From Phycomyces blakesleeanus NRRL 1555(-) (Eukaryota; Mucoromycota; Mucoromycetes; Mucorales; Phycomycetaceae), in the NCBI RefSeq assembly GCF_001638985.1, contig NW_017265152.1:931262-995261 (forward strand): DNA of 64,000 nucleotides. The letters run 5' to 3'. The translations under genes and the position numbers were made by a program. Positions 1-11,427 of the stretch are shown here, piece after piece. Under the pieces are notes generated by a model. It ran no database searches and had not been told where the DNA came from. It was given only the letters and a program-made list of their open reading frames with translations. Position 1 is the stretch's first letter, and each line of letters begins with the position of its first letter.

Positions 1-278
1 TATATTTGTTTATTTTAATACCAATCTATACCACACATACAAGACTATCCAATGTACCTTGATAACTTCGTAGTATTGAGGAATATTTAGTGCTACTGCA
101 TCAACCTAAAAAATACATCAATATATTTAATTCTATTCTTGCCATCTTAATATATGCATATACATATGCATATGTATACGCATATGTATATGGAGATCAG
201 TAAACTCACTGGTTCATAAAATGGCTGGGATGCCTGATGTTGCCACACTTTTTTCAAAATACGATCACAACGTTTGAG
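1..278 (-). other. Bromodomain 3 of the TAF2 fusion (cut by the window edge)
   Basis: LKRCDRILKKVWQHQASQPF at 278-219 is a bromodomain helix Z. A GTGAGT donor follows YEP at 209. After a TTTTTTAG acceptor, an exon at 105-58 gives VDAVALNIPQYYEVIK, the usual next segment of a bromodomain. It ends at a GTACAT donor, so the rest of the domain lies left of the window. The GTACAT donor is acceptable but not strong. Confidence 0.8.
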
Positions 279-3200
279 ATTATTACCATCCATGACAGCC
301 TGGATTGAAGACGATTTGGGCCTAGACGATTTGGGCTTGTCGGATCTGCCCATCCCACTACTATTTGAGGAGTCGTGTTTTTGGTGTTTGGTCGGAGTCG
401 TTGTCTTTGAGTCGTGTGCATCAGACACCTTGTGTTTGTGCTTTTCTGAAGAAGAATGTGTCATGGCTGCAGATGGTAAAGAAGAGGAGGTAGAAGAAAT
501 TGATGATGAGGAAGAAGTCTTGATCTTGACGGTAAGTTCTGGTACTGATGCTGGTGTCGGTGTTGCTGTTGCTGATGTGGGTGTCAGTACATGTGCCGAT
601 ACAGGTGCAGGTGCAGATACAGGTGCAGGTGCAGACGTAGGTGTATGTTGTGTATGTGTATGTATAGGCGTAGGAGTAGGCGTAGGCGAAGGTGCATGTG
701 CTTTTACTGGTGCAGACACTGGTGTAGGTGCAGACAAACGTACAGGCACTGGTGCAGAAACTGGTGCAGAAACTGGCTTCTCTTTAGAAACCTCGACCGA
801 AGTTCGACGAGTGTTTCCAAAATATGCATTATAAGCAGTACTAAAAACTTCTTCAAGCTGCTTGGCCTCGTTATATACATAAGTGTTTGGAGGATTAAAG
901 GTGAAGCAGTTACGAAGCATAAGGCGCACATCGTCATCGAGTTGTTGTGGATGGCTGTATTGGTTCTTTTGTAGCTTGGTCTTGATAGTACTCAAGTCCA
1001 TAGGCGTTTTGATGATATTAAAGTAGTGTGGAACACCTTGCTTTACAGGATCTACCGGTCGTAAGAATTCGAACGCGTGTCGGCATTCCATAGCCTTCAT
1101 CAGTACATCCATCATCTTTTCCTTCATAGTCTTTGGGCCTTCTGGTTTATCTAGTTTCTTTGGTGGCACAGGTGTGTGTGTAGAAGATGCAGCAGATTTA
1201 ACTGGAGGTGGTGTATAGGTAGTAGGTGGAGTAGGTTTAGGCGGCGTTGATCCGGTAGACGAAGAAGGCCTTGGGGATGCAGTTGTGTGTTTTGGTGGAG
1301 CAGTAGATGGTCTTTGTGAAGCAGCCGCAGGTCTTGGTGGTGTAGGCACTGGTCTTGGTGTAGTGGAGACAGGCCTTGGTGAAGGAGTTGGTGGTCTTGA
1401 AGGAGTTGGTGCTCGTACAGGCGCACCACCACTTGGGGGTATTTTTGTACTTGGAGGTGTCTTCACACTCGAGGGTTTCGCACTCGGAGGAGGTTTTGCA
1501 CTCGTAGGAGGCTTGACACTCTGAGGAGGTTTGACACTCTGAGGAGGTTTGGTACTCTGAGGAGGTTTGGTACTCGGGGGAGGTTTGGTACTCTGGACAG
1601 GCTTTGCACTCTGGGGAGGAGGAGGCTTGACACTCTGGGGAGGTTTTACACTCTGAGGAGGCTTCACGCTTTGCGAAGGTTTCACGCTCTGAGGCGGTTT
1701 CACACTTTGAGGAGGCTTCATGATCGGTGGTTTTACAGGTTTAACTGGGTTCTCGACAATCGTCATATTTTGAGTCTCTTCGTGCTCTTTGCCCTTGATC
1801 TGAGACAGCTCTTTCTCAAGCACTACCTCAAGTGCCTGTCCTTCATTGTAGACAAAGGTTCCAGGTCCGTTGTAGGCAAAACAATTACTCAACATCAAGC
1901 GGACATCATCTTCAAACTGACGGAATGAAGTATATTGTTTGTTGTCAAGTTTTTTCTAATAAAGAAATTATAAGTTTATTATTACATTGGTTTTCTTGTG
2001 GTCGAATTGTTCCTTTGTTTTTGTGTTTGTATTTGTGTTTGTATTTGTATTTGTATTTTACCTTTACACTGCTGAGATCCATTGGTCTCCTGATTAACAC
2101 GCGAGTAGATCATGGCGTGTTAGTCTATATTCAGTTCGATCTTCGTAACACTTACTTTATGATCTTATAGTATCCCGGAGCACCGTCAAGCGTCTCATCC
2201 ACAGGTTGTAAGAACGGAAGTGCTGCGCGATGCTTGAGCAGTTTGCTGAGAACACGGCGCGATCGTTTGGTTTCCTCTCCCGACATGCCTTCGGGTTTTC
2301 GGATGGTAACCTTTGGAATAGACGGCGTCGATTTTTGCTCGACTGGTTGTGGTCGCGCCACAGGTGTTTCGACAGCCAGCACTGGCACTGGCACAGCCGC
2401 AGGTTTAGGTGAAGGCTGACGAGGTGGAACAGGCAGACGCACAGAAACTGAAGCGGGTCGCGCAGGTGCGGGTGTGGGAGTAATTGCGGGTGTAGACACC
2501 GGTGCAGATGTGGGTGCTGACTTGTGCACTGGCATTGGTGTTGGGACGGGTAAAGAGGCGGATGACGGGTGCTCAATCGTTGTTGGCTCGGTTTTGATGT
2601 GCACGGTTTTGGAACCTGATTTCTTGGCGGGTTTCGGGTTCTCTGACGAGTGCACAGATGGTGGTCTTGACTTGACTGTATCGTGTTTACTATCTACATC
2701 TTTTCGTGGTTGCGAAGATTTTGGTTTACTGATACGGAGAATTGCAGGCGCAGGTGGTGCTTCTGATTCTTGAATATCGTCTGAAAGATCCTGTGCCTTT
2801 TATTTTTATAAAACCAAAACCAAAACCAAAAAAAAAAAATGGTACCAGAAGATATTGAGGATGTTATCGTCAAAGTATAATTTGCCTTTTCTGACTATTT
2901 TTTTTTGTAAAAAAAAAAGGGCTCTTACCGGTAATGTTGGTACACGGATTGTAACTTTTAGGCCAACATCTACAGGTTTGTACATGTATTCACAAAACTG
3001 TAAAAGGTATTTTCGAATACAGTAATCCAACTCTGCATATTCAGTTGAGCTAAGGTAGTTATTATATATATAAAGAAAATACAAGGCAGATTAGTTTTTT
3101 GGTTTTTGGTTTTTGGTTTAGTAAGCAGCTCATATTTGGTTTCAAGTTTTCTTCCTTACTTGAGAAGTTCCCAGAGTCTTTGCTGAAGCTGTGTATTGTT

Positions 3201-6200
3201 TTCGAATCGTTTTCGCAAATGCTCTACGCTCGCCTGGAACTCCTGTTGGGGCGTTTTCCCAAACGGTTGGCGGTCATCGTCGATAGCAACTTTTCCTTCC
3301 TCTTCTGCAAACTCTTCAACAAATCGACCGTGCGGAATATCCGCTCTTTCGCGCATCGCAAGTCCCAACCACGCCAGCATGGCCCGTGCGACATAATGAG
3401 ACACATAAACGCATGGATCATCGTTAATGACACTCAAGAAGTACTGGATCAAGGCATTATCAGTAAGTCCACACAGCACAAAAAGACTATCAAATGCTGC
3501 CAGTCTGATCTCAAGGAAATTTCCATATCTGTTTTAGAGTTAAAAGAAAGAAAAAAAAAAGTAAAAGAAAAGACGTGTGTAAATGAATGATGTGTGTGCA
3601 CAGCATGTGAAAATGTTCATTTTTGGAGAAGCTGCCTTTCTTTCTTTCTTTCTTTCTTTTTCTTTTTACCTTGTGTAATGTAAAAGAATACCGATATTAA
3701 TATCCATTAGGTTATTTAGTGCCAGTTTTGTCATCGTCTAGGGAAGAAGAAGTGAGTATGTCTTACTTGTGTTCCACAAAAAAGGAGATGAAACTTACCT
3801 TGATACAAGCTACGGTAACAACGTTGTGATATGTAGGGATCACATAATCTAATGTACGGAAACGTTCAATTTCTGCCTTGACTGCAGTCAATAATTGTTC
3901 GCCCTCAATATCATCAAATTGAAGGGCATCTGGAACATCTGGCGACGGTATTACCGAATCTCCAACAGCAGAGATAAGTGTGGCTACATAGTAGCAGTCT
4001 GAAAACTACAGATGGTTCCGTTTAAAGGTTAAAACCTCATACTAGCTTTTTTGTTTGATATATATACATTGTGAAGAAATAAATAATGATAATGATAATG
4101 TTTTTTTTTAAAAAAAGAAATCGTTACTGTAAATTATTTACCTCGTTGCTGATATTGTCATTGTACTTTAGGAGATCAAGCAAGAATTGACGGATTTTGA
4201 TAGGGGCCAAACCATGTTGGTCGCGTACTTGAGAGAACGCGATTACAACTGCTTTTTGGATAAAGTAGTCCGGTAAGGTTGAAAAGTTGTTTGGCTTTGG
4301 AATTGCGAGGCTAAGAGGAATTTCGTCGTCGATTTCCATGAGTGAATTTCCGGTTGGGAAACAATAGCGCTTCTGGAACATTTTGTTTAACTGATGAAGT
4401 CCAGTGTAGTCGAGGCTAGGGATGGCACAAGTAGCGAGGGCGTAGGCTGCCTCCATGCGGATCTTGTAAAAACATTTCGGATCCAACAGTGCTCTCAAAA
4501 GACTAGTGGATGTAGGTAATGATGGCATGTGCCTAAGAGCTCCGATTGCATCGTGTTGGGCAACAACGTCTCTGTCCTTTGTCAATTGCGCTGCCCACAT
4601 ATAATCCGGCTGCTGGAATTCGAACACACTCAGCCATTCAAACTCTGCGTCCAGACGGATCCAATCGAACATCGCACTTGCTGCTCCACTTGTGTCTTCT
4701 TCGTCCTGTCCCCACTCAATAATCTTCCAGTCCTGTCGCTGCTGAGGATCCTCGAATATAGGCATACCCAATCCTAAACTAGGTATAATTCCCAACACAT
4801 TTGTTGTGCCATCGCCATCTTCATTTTCATTCTCCTCTTCTGCTACGGCTGCAGCTGCAGCGGCCTGCTTAGCCAAGAAACGTTTTGTGTTTCTTCTAAT
4901 ACGCTTGTATTTAGTGTTGAATTGGACTTCAAATTTGTGTTTGCTGGATTGGATATCCAAGATGTGCTCGTAAGGTGTTCCGTCTGCTTCGTGAATACGC
5001 ACTGTTAAATTTCCAGTAAACAGAGGTGTGACAAGCTCTTGGAAATTGATTGCTCCTCCGTCTGCTGTCAGACTTGTCGAATTTTCGCCGGTACCGATTA
5101 CCGTATTTGTGTTTTCTTGACGCATAAAAATCTCAACCACCATCTTCTTACGATTAAAGTGGAAATTGAATCCAAACTTTGGGCAGCCACTCTTATAGAC
5201 CCACTGATCTGCAAAGGTCTTTGTATCAAATCCACTGACTTTTCGGCACAGTTTCATAAAGTAATGAGTGCTGATGGCGTTCTGAACAAGTTCTCCACTC
5301 ATGGCTGACACAAGAATCTTTGGTAGAACACGCGAAAGACCCAGAGTGCCACCACCCTTACACATCCTCTTGTCCAGCATGTACAAAACCAGGGGTGCCT
5401 TTAGTTCCAAAAAGTCAAGATCCTCTGGATCCAATGGAGAAGGTAATGCAGGATTATACAAAGGTGGGCGGTTCACATCAAGTGCACAACATAATTCCAT
5501 ATCCTATCACCACAACCAAAAGACAACATCAGTTTCTTTTCGATCCCACACACACACACTATTTATCTTTCTATTTGTTCCTTTGTCTCTAAGTGTAATT
5601 TCCTCTGTAAGCACTTACTCGCTTCAGTCTTAGTCGATATTCATTATTACCCAGATGACGTTTGATAAATAATGAAGATATTAGGTTTGCCAAACCACAA
5701 ACCAACCAAGTATCAGGCCAAGACTTTTGGGTAATGTGAATACCAAACCACTGCCTTGCAAGTGCCAAACTCAGTGCCTGCCTGGTGTGGTATGTCTGGT
5801 CAATGATATCTGCGGGATGAAGGAGATGTGAACTAGATAAATATATATATATAACAAATCATAAATGCAAGAGTCGCACACAACAAAGCAGTAACAATAA
5901 CCCTGACTATTTCGTACCTGCAAATTGCTAATGAAGCACAAGAAGCCGTCTCATTCCAAGCATCTTCGACAAAAACCATTTTAAAATCAGAGAATGGGTA
6001 GGATCCATATTCTTGTGCGTAGAAATGCATAGCCTAAATTTACAGACACACAAAAAGTTCATATTCAATCCGCCACAAAATAAATAGATACAGAATAATA
6101 ATAATAACAATAATAGTAAAACCCCTACATGCATAAGAAAACTACAGCTGACGCTCAGTTCTTCCTCCTTCCCCGGCAACGCAAATGCATAGATGTTAGA

Positions 6201-8229
6201 CATCATGTTAATTTCAGCCATCAGACTCTGTTGTTGATTTTCATCCAAATCGGCTGCATTTAACACTTCTTCCTGGAGTTGTGATGGCGACAGTTTTATC
6301 ATTTCAAAAGGGCCAATAGCGAATCCAATAAAAGGTGCTGCGGTAGGTACAGACAAACTGTAGTGCACAATTTTCTTTGAAGGATCTAGAGGATGGACAA
6401 CCTAAAAATTCGTACACACACACACATACACAAATCTTCTTCTCAGTTTTTTTTTCTTCCATTTCCCCCCTTTTTTTTAACATTTGTACGCAATCCTTAT
6501 TTCTTATTACCTGCTCTACAACATCGCCACTGCAAACTACCACAGTTGCGTCCTCTTCTTCTTCAAATACTCCCTCTGTATCGTATTCACCCGTAACACC
6601 GCTCATTCGACGTGGCACTACAAATTCCATTTCCCAAGTACATCTTTCTGAAATTTTGTCGATACATGGTAACCATGCGCGGGTTGCTCCAGGAAGTGGT
6701 TGATTTACGGTATATATATGGCTGTGGCGCTTTATAAACCATTACAAATAAGTCATGTGTATGTATATATAAATGTATATGTGGACTTACATAAGGTGCT
6801 ACTTCATCGTCTGGTTCAACAAACACAACACCAGCCTTGGGGTGATCAAGTATATAATCGACCCGAATTACAAGGGGTGCAAATGATGGTGCTGGTACAG
6901 CCGTAGGAGCAGTGGGTGCTTTTTCAGCAATAGTAACGTCGTCTTGTAACTCTAGATGACACACGCACATTTGAGTTTAGATATGTACTCTCTTTTGTTC
7001 TTGCTTTGCTTTACTTTGATTTTTTATTTGATTTTATTTACAGTTTTTTTTTAGATGAAAAAATAAATAAATCCTCTCTCTCACTCTCTTTATCTGTTTA
7101 TCTCACATCCTATTTTTCTCTATTTCTATTTCTCTCCTTCCACTCTAAAAATAAGCAAACAACCAACCAACCAACCAACCGGCCAACCGGCCAGCTGGCC
7201 AACTAATTAACCAACCAACCTGCATGACTGTGTAGAAAAATATCGTTGCTAATCATTTGTGCTTCTGATTCTGTCATCTACACTCAACAAAACAAAACAA
7301 TATAGATATATAGATATATGTATATGCATATGAATGTGTATTCATTATTTTATCAGCACATAAACAAGCAAACAGACAAACAAACATAAACACATACACA
7401 CACGCATAAATCGTTACCTGTTTAATGCTGTCTTCTGGTATTTTGATCAACAACTCCCCCTCATCTGCTTCTCTCAATGCATTTAAGTATCGACTTTTGT
7501 AAACTTGGTGATGAGCAACTGTTGTGTTTGGTCCCAATGTCAATTCTGAAACAGCGTCTGAATGAGTAAAATCCACCGAAACATTATTCACAAATGTTTT
7601 CAAGATTTCTGTACATTATAAAGAAATTAATAAAGTTAGTAAAGCTTTCAAAGAAGGTTTTTCTTCTTTTCTTTTTATCCAGTATTTGTGAGCGCTAATC
7701 TGCAAGTATATATATATATATATCGTTTGGTTGCTTGTTTTTTTTTTCGTTCGTTCGTTCTACATACGACAATGCCGGCTATTGATTCGGATGCTGTTTA
7801 GTTTGCTGTGCAGTGGTTGAATGGTAAGCTCAGCTGAGCCCTAGAACATACATGAACAATACTTTATTTAAGTAAAAAGAAGAACAAGAACAAGAAAGAA
7901 AAAGGAGAGGAAGGAGGGGATGAAATACAGTGATTGATGTACAAGCTACTGTTATTATAAGCTTCGCTTACATGGAGGATGCGACGGCTTGGATCAACTT
8001 CCAGCACAAAGCGTTCATGACTCGTAAGGTGACCAAAAAAAAAAAGAAATAGATAAATAAATAATTATAATAAGTGAAATAATAATCGTCAGCCAATTAT
8101 GGAATGAGAGAATGAATAGATAAATGAATGAAAGGATTAACTAATGAGCTAAGGACTTTGTGGTTGGTTAATGAAGTTTGGAAAGTATACTTATAATGTG
8201 AACCCTTTCTTGTATGCGTCTCTTTGCAT
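1..8229 (-). CDS. TAF2: TFIID subunit TAF2 fused to tandem bromodomains (partial at its 3' end)
   Basis: TAF2 is the M1-aminopeptidase-like TFIID subunit that helps bind core promoters. Pieces in order match the family: GSAELTIQPLHSKLNSIRIN near 7.8 kb; exons at about 7.6-7.4, 7.27-7.22, 6.95-6.79, 6.73-6.52 and 6.41-6.13 kb; FYAQEYGSYPFSDFKMVFVE near 6.0 kb; a degenerate peptidase site (ALARQWFG, no HEXXH) near 5.75 kb; a large exon at about 5.5-4.14 kb; and HEAT-like pieces down to 2.93 kb. The exon ending VTIRVPTLP then joins, phase 0, to DLSDDIQESEAPPAPA, which runs without a stop into bromodomain sequence. The loss of the catalytic motif is normal for TAF2. The initiator is unresolved: ATG 8229-8227 is one candidate, but the first donor and the join near 7.7-7.6 kb are unclear. 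The gene continues past the left edge. TAF2 identity is firm; the fusion is strongly supported by phase. Confidence 0.9.
816..1133 (-). other. Bromodomain 2 of the TAF2 fusion
   Basis: An intron-free bromodomain: MKEKMMDVLMKAMECRHAFE, then FLRPVDP, IIKTPMDLSTIKTKL, and DDDVRLMLRNCFTFNPPNTY. The conserved asparagine in NCFTFNPP and the PMDL motif are intact. It is flanked by low-complexity Pro/Lys/Ser/Ala linkers. Confidence 0.93.
1415..1765 (-). repeat. Proline-rich KPPQSV-type hexapeptide repeat linker
   Basis: Between bromodomains 1 and 2 the protein carries more than ten tandem units of the type KPPQSV (variants KPPQST, KPPPSA, KPSSVK). They appear on the plus strand as repeated CTCTGAGGAGG-like 18-base units. 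It is a coding repeat within the TAF2 fusion and a likely flexible, length-variable linker. Confidence 0.9.
1800..2280 (-). other. Bromodomain 1 of the TAF2 fusion
   Basis: The domain starts at EETKRSRRVLSKLLKH near 2280 and crosses two introns. The exon ending PGYYKIIK at about 2153 joins a 28-base exon near 2096-2069 (RPMDLSSVK). That joins, phase 0, to KKLDNKQYTSFRQFEDDVR from about 1953. The ZA-loop PMDL and the acetyl-lysine-binding asparagine context (SNCFAYNGP) are both present, so this looks like a functional reader module. Confidence 0.9.

Positions 8230-10060: not shown

Positions 10061-11427
<1,367 letters not shown>

What the first reader, a model, noticed from the sequence alone, without database searches (positions are those of the whole stretch)
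1..8229. TAF2 fused in frame to at least three bromodomains
The sequence shows the last TAF2-like exon (ending VTIRVPTLP) spliced phase 0 into an exon that runs stop-free into bromodomain 1, then bromodomains 2 and 3. In animals, the tandem bromodomains of TFIID sit on TAF1; in yeast they are on the separate protein Bdf1. A TAF2 carrying them would relocate acetyl-histone reading to the promoter-binding subunit. Bromodomain fusions of TAF2 may already exist in relatives; I cannot check that here.
Basis: partly seen in the sequence, partly recalled or inferred. Interest (0 to 1): 0.75.

Follow-up and report, generated by a model that had tools for sequence, protein, structure and literature searches.

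The report
Fungal TAF2 carrying four bromodomains
In this mould one core transcription-start protein, TAF2, carries four modules that recognise chemically marked histones; the same arrangement turns up in many fungi outside the yeast branch, so the gene is real but not unusual for its group.

Summary
On the minus strand 20 exons (8229 to 58 in the window, then about 0.7 kb past its left edge) splice into one 2,220-residue frame: TAF2 (residues 1-1169) followed by four bromodomains. The join is a 132-base phase-0 intron; peptides on both sides recur in most of 25 Mucoromycota relatives aligned, which argues against two genes. The organism is Phycomyces or very close. Its genome has one TAF2, a TAF1 without bromodomains, and BET genes too. 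The fusion is not peculiar to it: 119 of the 120 best-listed relatives carry it, and 5 of 7 named chytrid TAF2s; 47 of 47 named Ascomycota in a length-limited list, and 5 of 5 insects, lack it. Best reading: an old fungal trait that builds acetyl-lysine readers into TFIID's TAF2 lobe, apparently lost in Ascomycota. The reading function is inferred. Nine searches of the held library showed no paper describing it; one 2026 paper notes a bromodomain match at Cryptococcus TAF2. New member of a known kind.

The parts
58..8229 (-). TAF2-bromodomain gene, window part: exons 1-19 of 20 (exon 20 lies past the left edge, window coordinates -4 to -696, C19:930565-931257)
   Evidence: gene model of 20 exons, 19 GT-AG introns, all phases fitting, 2220 aa without an internal stop
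2929..8229 (-). TAF2 part, exons 1-15 (aa 1-1169): aminopeptidase-like, Ig-like and TPR regions
   Evidence: TAF2_3rd 1e-29 and TPR_TAF2_C 1.7e-30; solved Taf2 chain 6hqa_A 3.8e-143 over aa 6-1040; exon 1 splice uncertain
2797..2928 (-). 132-base phase-0 intron at the TAF2/bromodomain join; if retained, the frame stops inside it
2156..2796 (-). exon 16: linker and first part of bromodomain 1
1797..2262 (-). bromodomain 1 (aa 1348-1445), split over exons 16-18
   Evidence: residues, placed with the exon table; PF00439 hit C19:933103-933216 for its second part
1461..1720 (-). proline-rich KPPQSV-type linker between bromodomains 1 and 2, 18-base tandem unit
   Evidence: Tandem Repeats Finder
819..1127 (-). 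bromodomain 2 (aa 1669-1771)
   Evidence: residues, exon table; PF00439 hit C19:932122-932376, E 1.4e-20
58..278 (-). bromodomain 3 (aa 1952-2053), the part coded in exons 18-19; the rest and bromodomain 4 (aa 2063-2163, hit C19:930781-931026) lie in exon 20 outside the window

Best explanation
The gene encodes the TFIID subunit TAF2 with four C-terminal bromodomains on a long, repeat-rich tail. SHOWN: one continuous spliced frame in the genome; TAF2 family domains; four bromodomains each keeping the acetyl-lysine asparagine and tyrosine; the same architecture in predicted proteins of many fungal lineages. INFERRED: as in solved TFIID, TAF2 sits in the lobe that contacts promoter DNA, and its bromodomain tail reaches acetylated histone tails of a neighbouring nucleosome, so TFIID binding or residence is favoured at acetylated promoters, the job given to TAF1's double bromodomain in animals and to Bdf1 and Taf14 in yeast. 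The fusion is an old fungal feature, apparently lost in Ascomycota.
For: Gene model with 19 GT-AG introns and fitting phases. Across the join, VTIRVP before it is kept in 18 of 26 aligned proteins and a K/R-x-x-K/R-P-K motif after it in 16 of 26, the window's included. 119 of 120 listed relatives carry bromodomains; the exception, P0041, is named partial. 5 of 7 named chytrid TAF2s have them. The asparagine is kept in 457 of 478 bromodomain stretches and in 4 of 4 here. Third domains of six Mucoromycota group at 99, fourth at 89, and the fourth with the last domain of four of five chytrids at 97. Single TAF2, and no bromodomain match at TAF1.
Against: No transcript or protein data. A TAF2-only isoform by retention of intron 15 is possible. 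The public Phycomyces model stops before the bromodomains, though inside an earlier intron. The relatives are mostly predicted gene models too. Acetyl-lysine binding is untested; in 16 of 478 stretches, each the first bromodomain of its protein, the asparagine is T or S. Deep branches of the tree are weak (many 18-60), and some domains do not follow position: third and fourth domains of Mortierellales group with fifth and sixth of Mucorales, the first three of Bifiguratus with each other, and one chytrid (Blyttiomyces) is scattered. A single origin is not proven. Some other early fungi show TAF2 rows without bromodomains, mostly short or partial.
Confidence: 0.8

Rival explanations
1. Two adjacent genes: an ordinary TAF2 ending near 2.9 kb and a separate multi-bromodomain gene starting in exon 16.
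For: Exon 16 holds in-frame methionines at aa 1257 and 1340; no transcripts seen; the public model is truncated.
Against: Only 132 bases separate the two coding parts, with canonical splice sites and matching phase. Peptide upstream of the first methionine of exon 16 recurs in relatives. Single fused proteins are predicted in many other genomes.
Confidence: 0.04
2. Both forms exist: retention of intron 15 makes a TAF2 without bromodomains as well as the fused protein.
For: The retained intron reads about 40 codons and then stops, so a bromodomain-free TAF2 is encodable.
Against: No positive evidence; noise-level intron retention is common (general knowledge).
Confidence: 0.15
3. The bromodomains act mainly on non-histone acetylated partners or as scaffolds, not as histone readers.
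For: A linker is long and repetitive; some first bromodomains in other fungi lack the asparagine; for yeast Bdf1 the ET domain contributed more than the bromodomains to TFIID recruitment at most loci (passages of PMC13373324).
Against: Asparagine and tyrosine are kept in all four domains here and in most stretches examined.
Confidence: 0.2
4. The bromodomains were taken over from TAF1, a true relocation inside TFIID.
For: This genome's TAF1 has no bromodomain match while TAF2 has four; human TAF1's pair falls beside one chytrid TAF2 bromodomain at support 47.
Against: The other TAF2 bromodomains do not group with TAF1's. Bromodomain 1 scores 69 bits against BRD4's first domain and 47 against TAF1's second.
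Confidence: 0.15

Closest known systems
TAF2 of other Mucorales (Radiomyces P0001, Mucor P0006, Rhizopus P0014)
   Same: TAF2 plus bromodomains in one predicted protein (6, 6 and 4); 79, 74 and 72% identity to residues 1-1169
   Different: 13 of 29 Mucorales rows have six bromodomains, Phycomyces four
TAF2 of Basidiomycota, including Cryptococcus CNAG_03273 (PMC12844337)
   Same: TAF2 with a C-terminal bromodomain region
   Different: three bromodomains in 67 of 69 rows counted; asparagine changed in the first one of some
Ascomycete Taf2 (solved chain 6hqa_A, S. pombe P0170)
   Same: TAF2 core
   Different: no bromodomain match; in budding yeast the Taf2 C-terminal tail binds the YEATS protein Taf14
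Animal TAF1 double bromodomain and yeast Bdf1
   Same: acetyl-lysine readers tied to TFIID (passages)
   Different: carried by TAF1 or by a separate BET protein; the tree does not join them to TAF2 bromodomains with support

Membership tests
TAF2 (TFIID subunit 2) | TAF2-specific Ig-like and TPR domains (PF25316, PF25577) | tested here: met
   1e-29 and 1.7e-30, above curated cut-offs
TAF2 (TFIID subunit 2) | similarity over the TAF2 core to TAF2 of solved TFIID | tested here: met
   6hqa_A 'Taf2' 3.8e-143 over aa 6-1040; 'TFIID subunit 2' 30ff_DB 1.9e-108
TAF2 (TFIID subunit 2) | aminopeptidase-like region without the catalytic HExxH (motif recalled) | tested here: met
   no HExxH in the 2220 aa
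TAF2 (TFIID subunit 2) | presence in the TFIID complex in cells | not testable with these tools
   needs purification
Bromodomain (acetyl-lysine reader) | bromodomain profile match with the conserved asparagine and tyrosine | tested here: met
   PF00439 over cut-off at C19; 4 of 4 domains by the local profile, residues kept
Bromodomain (acetyl-lysine reader) | binding to acetyl-lysine | not testable with these tools
   no binding data
BET family (Bdf1/BRD4) | tandem bromodomains plus NET/ET domain | tested here: not met
   no NET hit on C19; sampled BET bromodomains form a clade of their own, 88
TAF1 | DUF3591 region with the bromodomains | tested here: not met
   4 DUF3591 matches, all on C16

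The most novel reading that the evidence does not exclude
TFIID of the fungal ancestor carried its acetyl-lysine readers on TAF2. Chytrids, zygomycetes and Basidiomycota keep them; Ascomycota lost them, so the yeast arrangement (bromodomain-free TAFs helped by detachable Bdf1 and Taf14) is a derived exception rather than the fungal norm.
Probability: 0.5. Interest if true: 0.6.

Novelty: new member of a known kind. Interest (0 to 1): 0.42.

Why it matters
The usual picture of TFIID comes from animals (bromodomains on TAF1) and ascomycete yeasts (none on the TAFs; Bdf1 and Taf14 help). Here the readers sit on TAF2, the subunit that touches promoter DNA. If general in fungi outside Ascomycota, as the sampled proteins suggest, it offers a natural experiment on how TFIID reads acetylated chromatin and on what yeast lost.

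Tried and rejected
Two-gene model: rejected on splice, phase and conservation grounds. Misassembly: the join lies inside one contig, and other genomes show the same fusion. A second, bromodomain-free TAF2 in this genome: not found; the only hit off C19 is on C27, 21.9 bits over about 100 residues. TAF1 origin of the bromodomains: not supported. The bacterial-type promoter scan says nothing about a fungal gene and was not used. Literature: nine searches, judged by their listings; two searches listed 8 of 56 and 15 of 1,719 papers. The only mention of a bromodomain at TAF2 that I saw is the Cryptococcus remark. A 2019 Genes and Development review of TFIID evolution, recalled, is not held, so an earlier description there cannot be excluded.

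Limits of the survey: one search listed 120 of 486 hits. One search admitted only proteins of about 460-1461 aa, by a query length chosen to expose TAF2s without bromodomains, and listed 120 of 221 hits, so Ascomycota with longer tails could be missed. One long solved Taf2 (6hqa_A, 1756 aa; Komagataella by recall and PMC6220335) shows no bromodomain stretch. Results against a universal fusion: the 2 chytrid rows without bromodomains are short (1027 and 1133 aa); four Coemansia rows (all partial), Smittium, Thamnocephalis, a partial Dispira, Geosiphon and a partial Ambispora also lack them, most ending near or before the end of the TAF2 core, but some run on past their last match, Coemansia P0145 by about 250 and Geosiphon P0161 by about 150 residues, so loss there is possible. 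Lineage names beyond those printed by the tools are recalled.

Tree limits: 25 TAF2 proteins were chosen by hand from those found; of this genome's bromodomains outside TAF2 only six, from three loci, were used, three short hits were dropped and its other bromodomain genes (25 exon-level matches in all) were not added; human references are seven fragments; rooting is at midpoint.

Full report
WHAT IS THERE. The window is C19:931262-995261 of a 53.5 Mb genome in 60 contigs. On its minus strand, from 8229 leftwards, I assembled a gene of 20 exons. Exon 20 lies beyond the window and was read from L009; the junction was checked with the overlapping locus L010. In the final model all 19 introns are GT-AG and every phase fits; the product is 2,220 aa and ends at C19:930565-930567. 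Boundaries were chosen by eye with the protein as guide, and some were corrected on the way. Residues 1-1169 are TAF2: the TAF2 Ig-like and TPR domains match at 1e-29 and 1.7e-30, and the best solved chains are Taf2 6hqa_A (3.8e-143) and TFIID subunit 2 30ff_DB (1.9e-108). Four bromodomains follow, at residues 1348-1445, 1669-1771, 1952-2053 and 2063-2163.

THE JOIN. Exon 15 (3049-2929) ends VTIRVPTLP and joins phase 0 to exon 16 (2796-2156) across a 132-base intron. I aligned the window protein with 25 chosen Mucoromycota relatives across the join. VTIRVP just before it is present in 18 of the 26 and a K/R-x-x-K/R-P-K motif shortly after it in 16 of 26; the rest, among them Umbelopsis (for the second motif), Endogone and Mortierella, vary. 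The motif lies upstream of the first methionine of exon 16 (residue 1257), so it would not be coding in a two-gene model. If the intron were retained, the frame would run about 40 codons and stop, giving a TAF2 without bromodomains. The relatives are themselves mostly predicted models, so transcripts remain the decisive test.

WHICH ORGANISM. A public Phycomyces blakesleeanus protein (P0121, 849 aa) matches residues 130-984 at 97.3% identity, gaps counted. Its last residues are the read-through of intron 12 (3798-3738; frame seen), so that model lacks the bromodomains. The window is therefore Phycomyces or very close.

THE REST OF TFIID READING IN THIS GENOME. TAF2 is single-copy as far as the search shows: off C19 there is one 21.9-bit hit. 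TAF1 (DUF3591) is on C16. No bromodomain match lies on C16, and none was found in open frames of the 9.9 kb around TAF1 even at E 10, although a TAF1-type zinc knuckle is there. Tandem bromodomain loci on C3, C45 and C2 fall in a clade with human BRD4; NET matches that together cover the domain, in two pieces each, lie on C3 and C45, and partial ones on C4 and C20. YEATS matches lie on C4, C7 and C1. So this fungus has BET proteins and TAF2 bromodomains, and no detected TAF1 bromodomains.

HOW WIDESPREAD. The first protein search gave 486 hits, 120 listed. By a local profile 119 of the 120 carry at least one bromodomain; the exception, P0041, is named partial. Counts per protein: 29 Mucorales rows have four (13 rows), five (3) or six (13); of 69 rows between P0049 and P0120 (Basidiomycota by name, or unnamed; three Dimargaris-group rows left out) 67 have three, one has two and one has one. 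Mortierellales, Umbelopsis, Endogone, Bifiguratus, Calcarisporiella and Dimargaris rows also carry them, and so does a partial Basidiobolus row. A search with a shorter query, which limits the length of what is found to about 460-1461 aa, listed 47 named Ascomycota rows (1136-1384 aa): 0 of 47 carry one, four of them checked against Pfam as well. A search from the chytrid Polychytrium gave 16 hits. Of 7 named chytrid TAF2s carry bromodomains (Phlyctochytrium, Batrachochytrium, Fimicolochytrium, Blyttiomyces, Cladochytrium) and 2 short ones do not; 5 of 5 named insect rows do not. In the length-limited list Coemansia, Smittium, Thamnocephalis, Dispira, Geosiphon and Ambispora rows also lack them; most are partial or end near the TAF2 core, but some run well past their last match, so further losses are possible. 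The simplest history is gain early in fungi and loss in Ascomycota. This is a sample and does not exclude other histories.

ORIGIN OF THE DOMAINS. A tree of 104 bromodomains over 99 columns (LG+G4, ultrafast bootstrap, midpoint rooting) groups many TAF2 bromodomains by position: third domains of six Mucoromycota 99; fourth domains of the same six 89, and these with the last domain of four of five chytrids 97; second domains of nine proteins 89. Against simple positional inheritance: third and fourth domains of Mortierellales group with the fifth and sixth of Mucorales and Endogone; the first three of Bifiguratus group together; Blyttiomyces is scattered; second domains of Basidiomycota group with third domains of the Dimargaris group (89). 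First domains of Basidiomycota and Mucoromycota lie near each other but weakly. Sampled BET domains, human and own, form a clade (88) without a TAF2 domain. Human TAF1's pair sits by one chytrid TAF2 domain at 47. I conclude vertical inheritance for several of the domains within Mucoromycota, for one probably from before the chytrid split; the ultimate source is open.

FUNCTION. In all retrieved proteins and the window (254 sequences, 137 with matches) the asparagine is present in 457 of 478 bromodomain stretches (12 T, 4 S, 5 gaps), and in all four here; the tyrosine in 473, with 5 gaps. The 16 T or S cases are, by their coordinates, all first bromodomains of their proteins. In the yeast TFIID structure TAF2 contacts promoter DNA, and a density assigned to the YEATS domain of Taf14 lies at the Taf2 lobe (passages of PMC6220335); Taf14 binds the C-terminal tail of Taf2 (passages of PMC9177701). 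The latter also names the other readers: TAF1 bromodomains and the TAF3 PHD finger in animals, Taf14 YEATS in yeast. In yeast, Bdf1 supports TFIID recruitment, at most loci more through its ET domain than through its bromodomains (passages of PMC13373324). By analogy the TAF2 tail here would hold TFIID at acetylated promoters. That step is inference.

LITERATURE. Nine searches of the held library showed, in their listings, no paper about bromodomains on TAF2. [quoted passage not shown] Passages only were seen of PMC5854669, PMC1199594 and PMC10442232. Public records already show TAF2 and bromodomain families in one protein, so I file this as a new member of a known kind.

VERDICT. A correct observation of a real, conserved architecture that is not peculiar to this genome. 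Its interest lies in how little it figures in accounts of TFIID based on yeast and animals.

Noticed in passing
window 3738-3798: The public Phycomyces TAF2 model (P0121) ends by reading into this intron, so the deposited protein lacks the TAF2 C terminus and all bromodomains.
   Followed up: yes
window 1461-1720: Proline-rich linker built of an 18-base tandem repeat (KPPQSV-like) between bromodomains 1 and 2.
   Followed up: partly
window 8020-8229: First splice unclear: relatives have FTLS between the KK-like start and HERF, which my GT-AG model drops.
   Followed up: partly
16 relatives (P0058, P0060, P0061, P0064, P0071, P0073, P0077, P0085, P0087, P0103, P0104, P0107, P0112, P0113, P0117, P0136), first bromodomain: Acetyl-lysine asparagine replaced by T or S in the first TAF2 bromodomain only.
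   Followed up: no
L036 451-6243 (C4): A frame with a very long poly-Q/PQ stretch and a bromodomain is followed about 2 kb on, same strand, by a YEATS match; whether one gene or two is not settled.
   Followed up: partly
window 10382-10819: Next gene, opposite strand: part of a ubiquitin-conjugating enzyme (PF00179, 9.1e-14).
   Followed up: no
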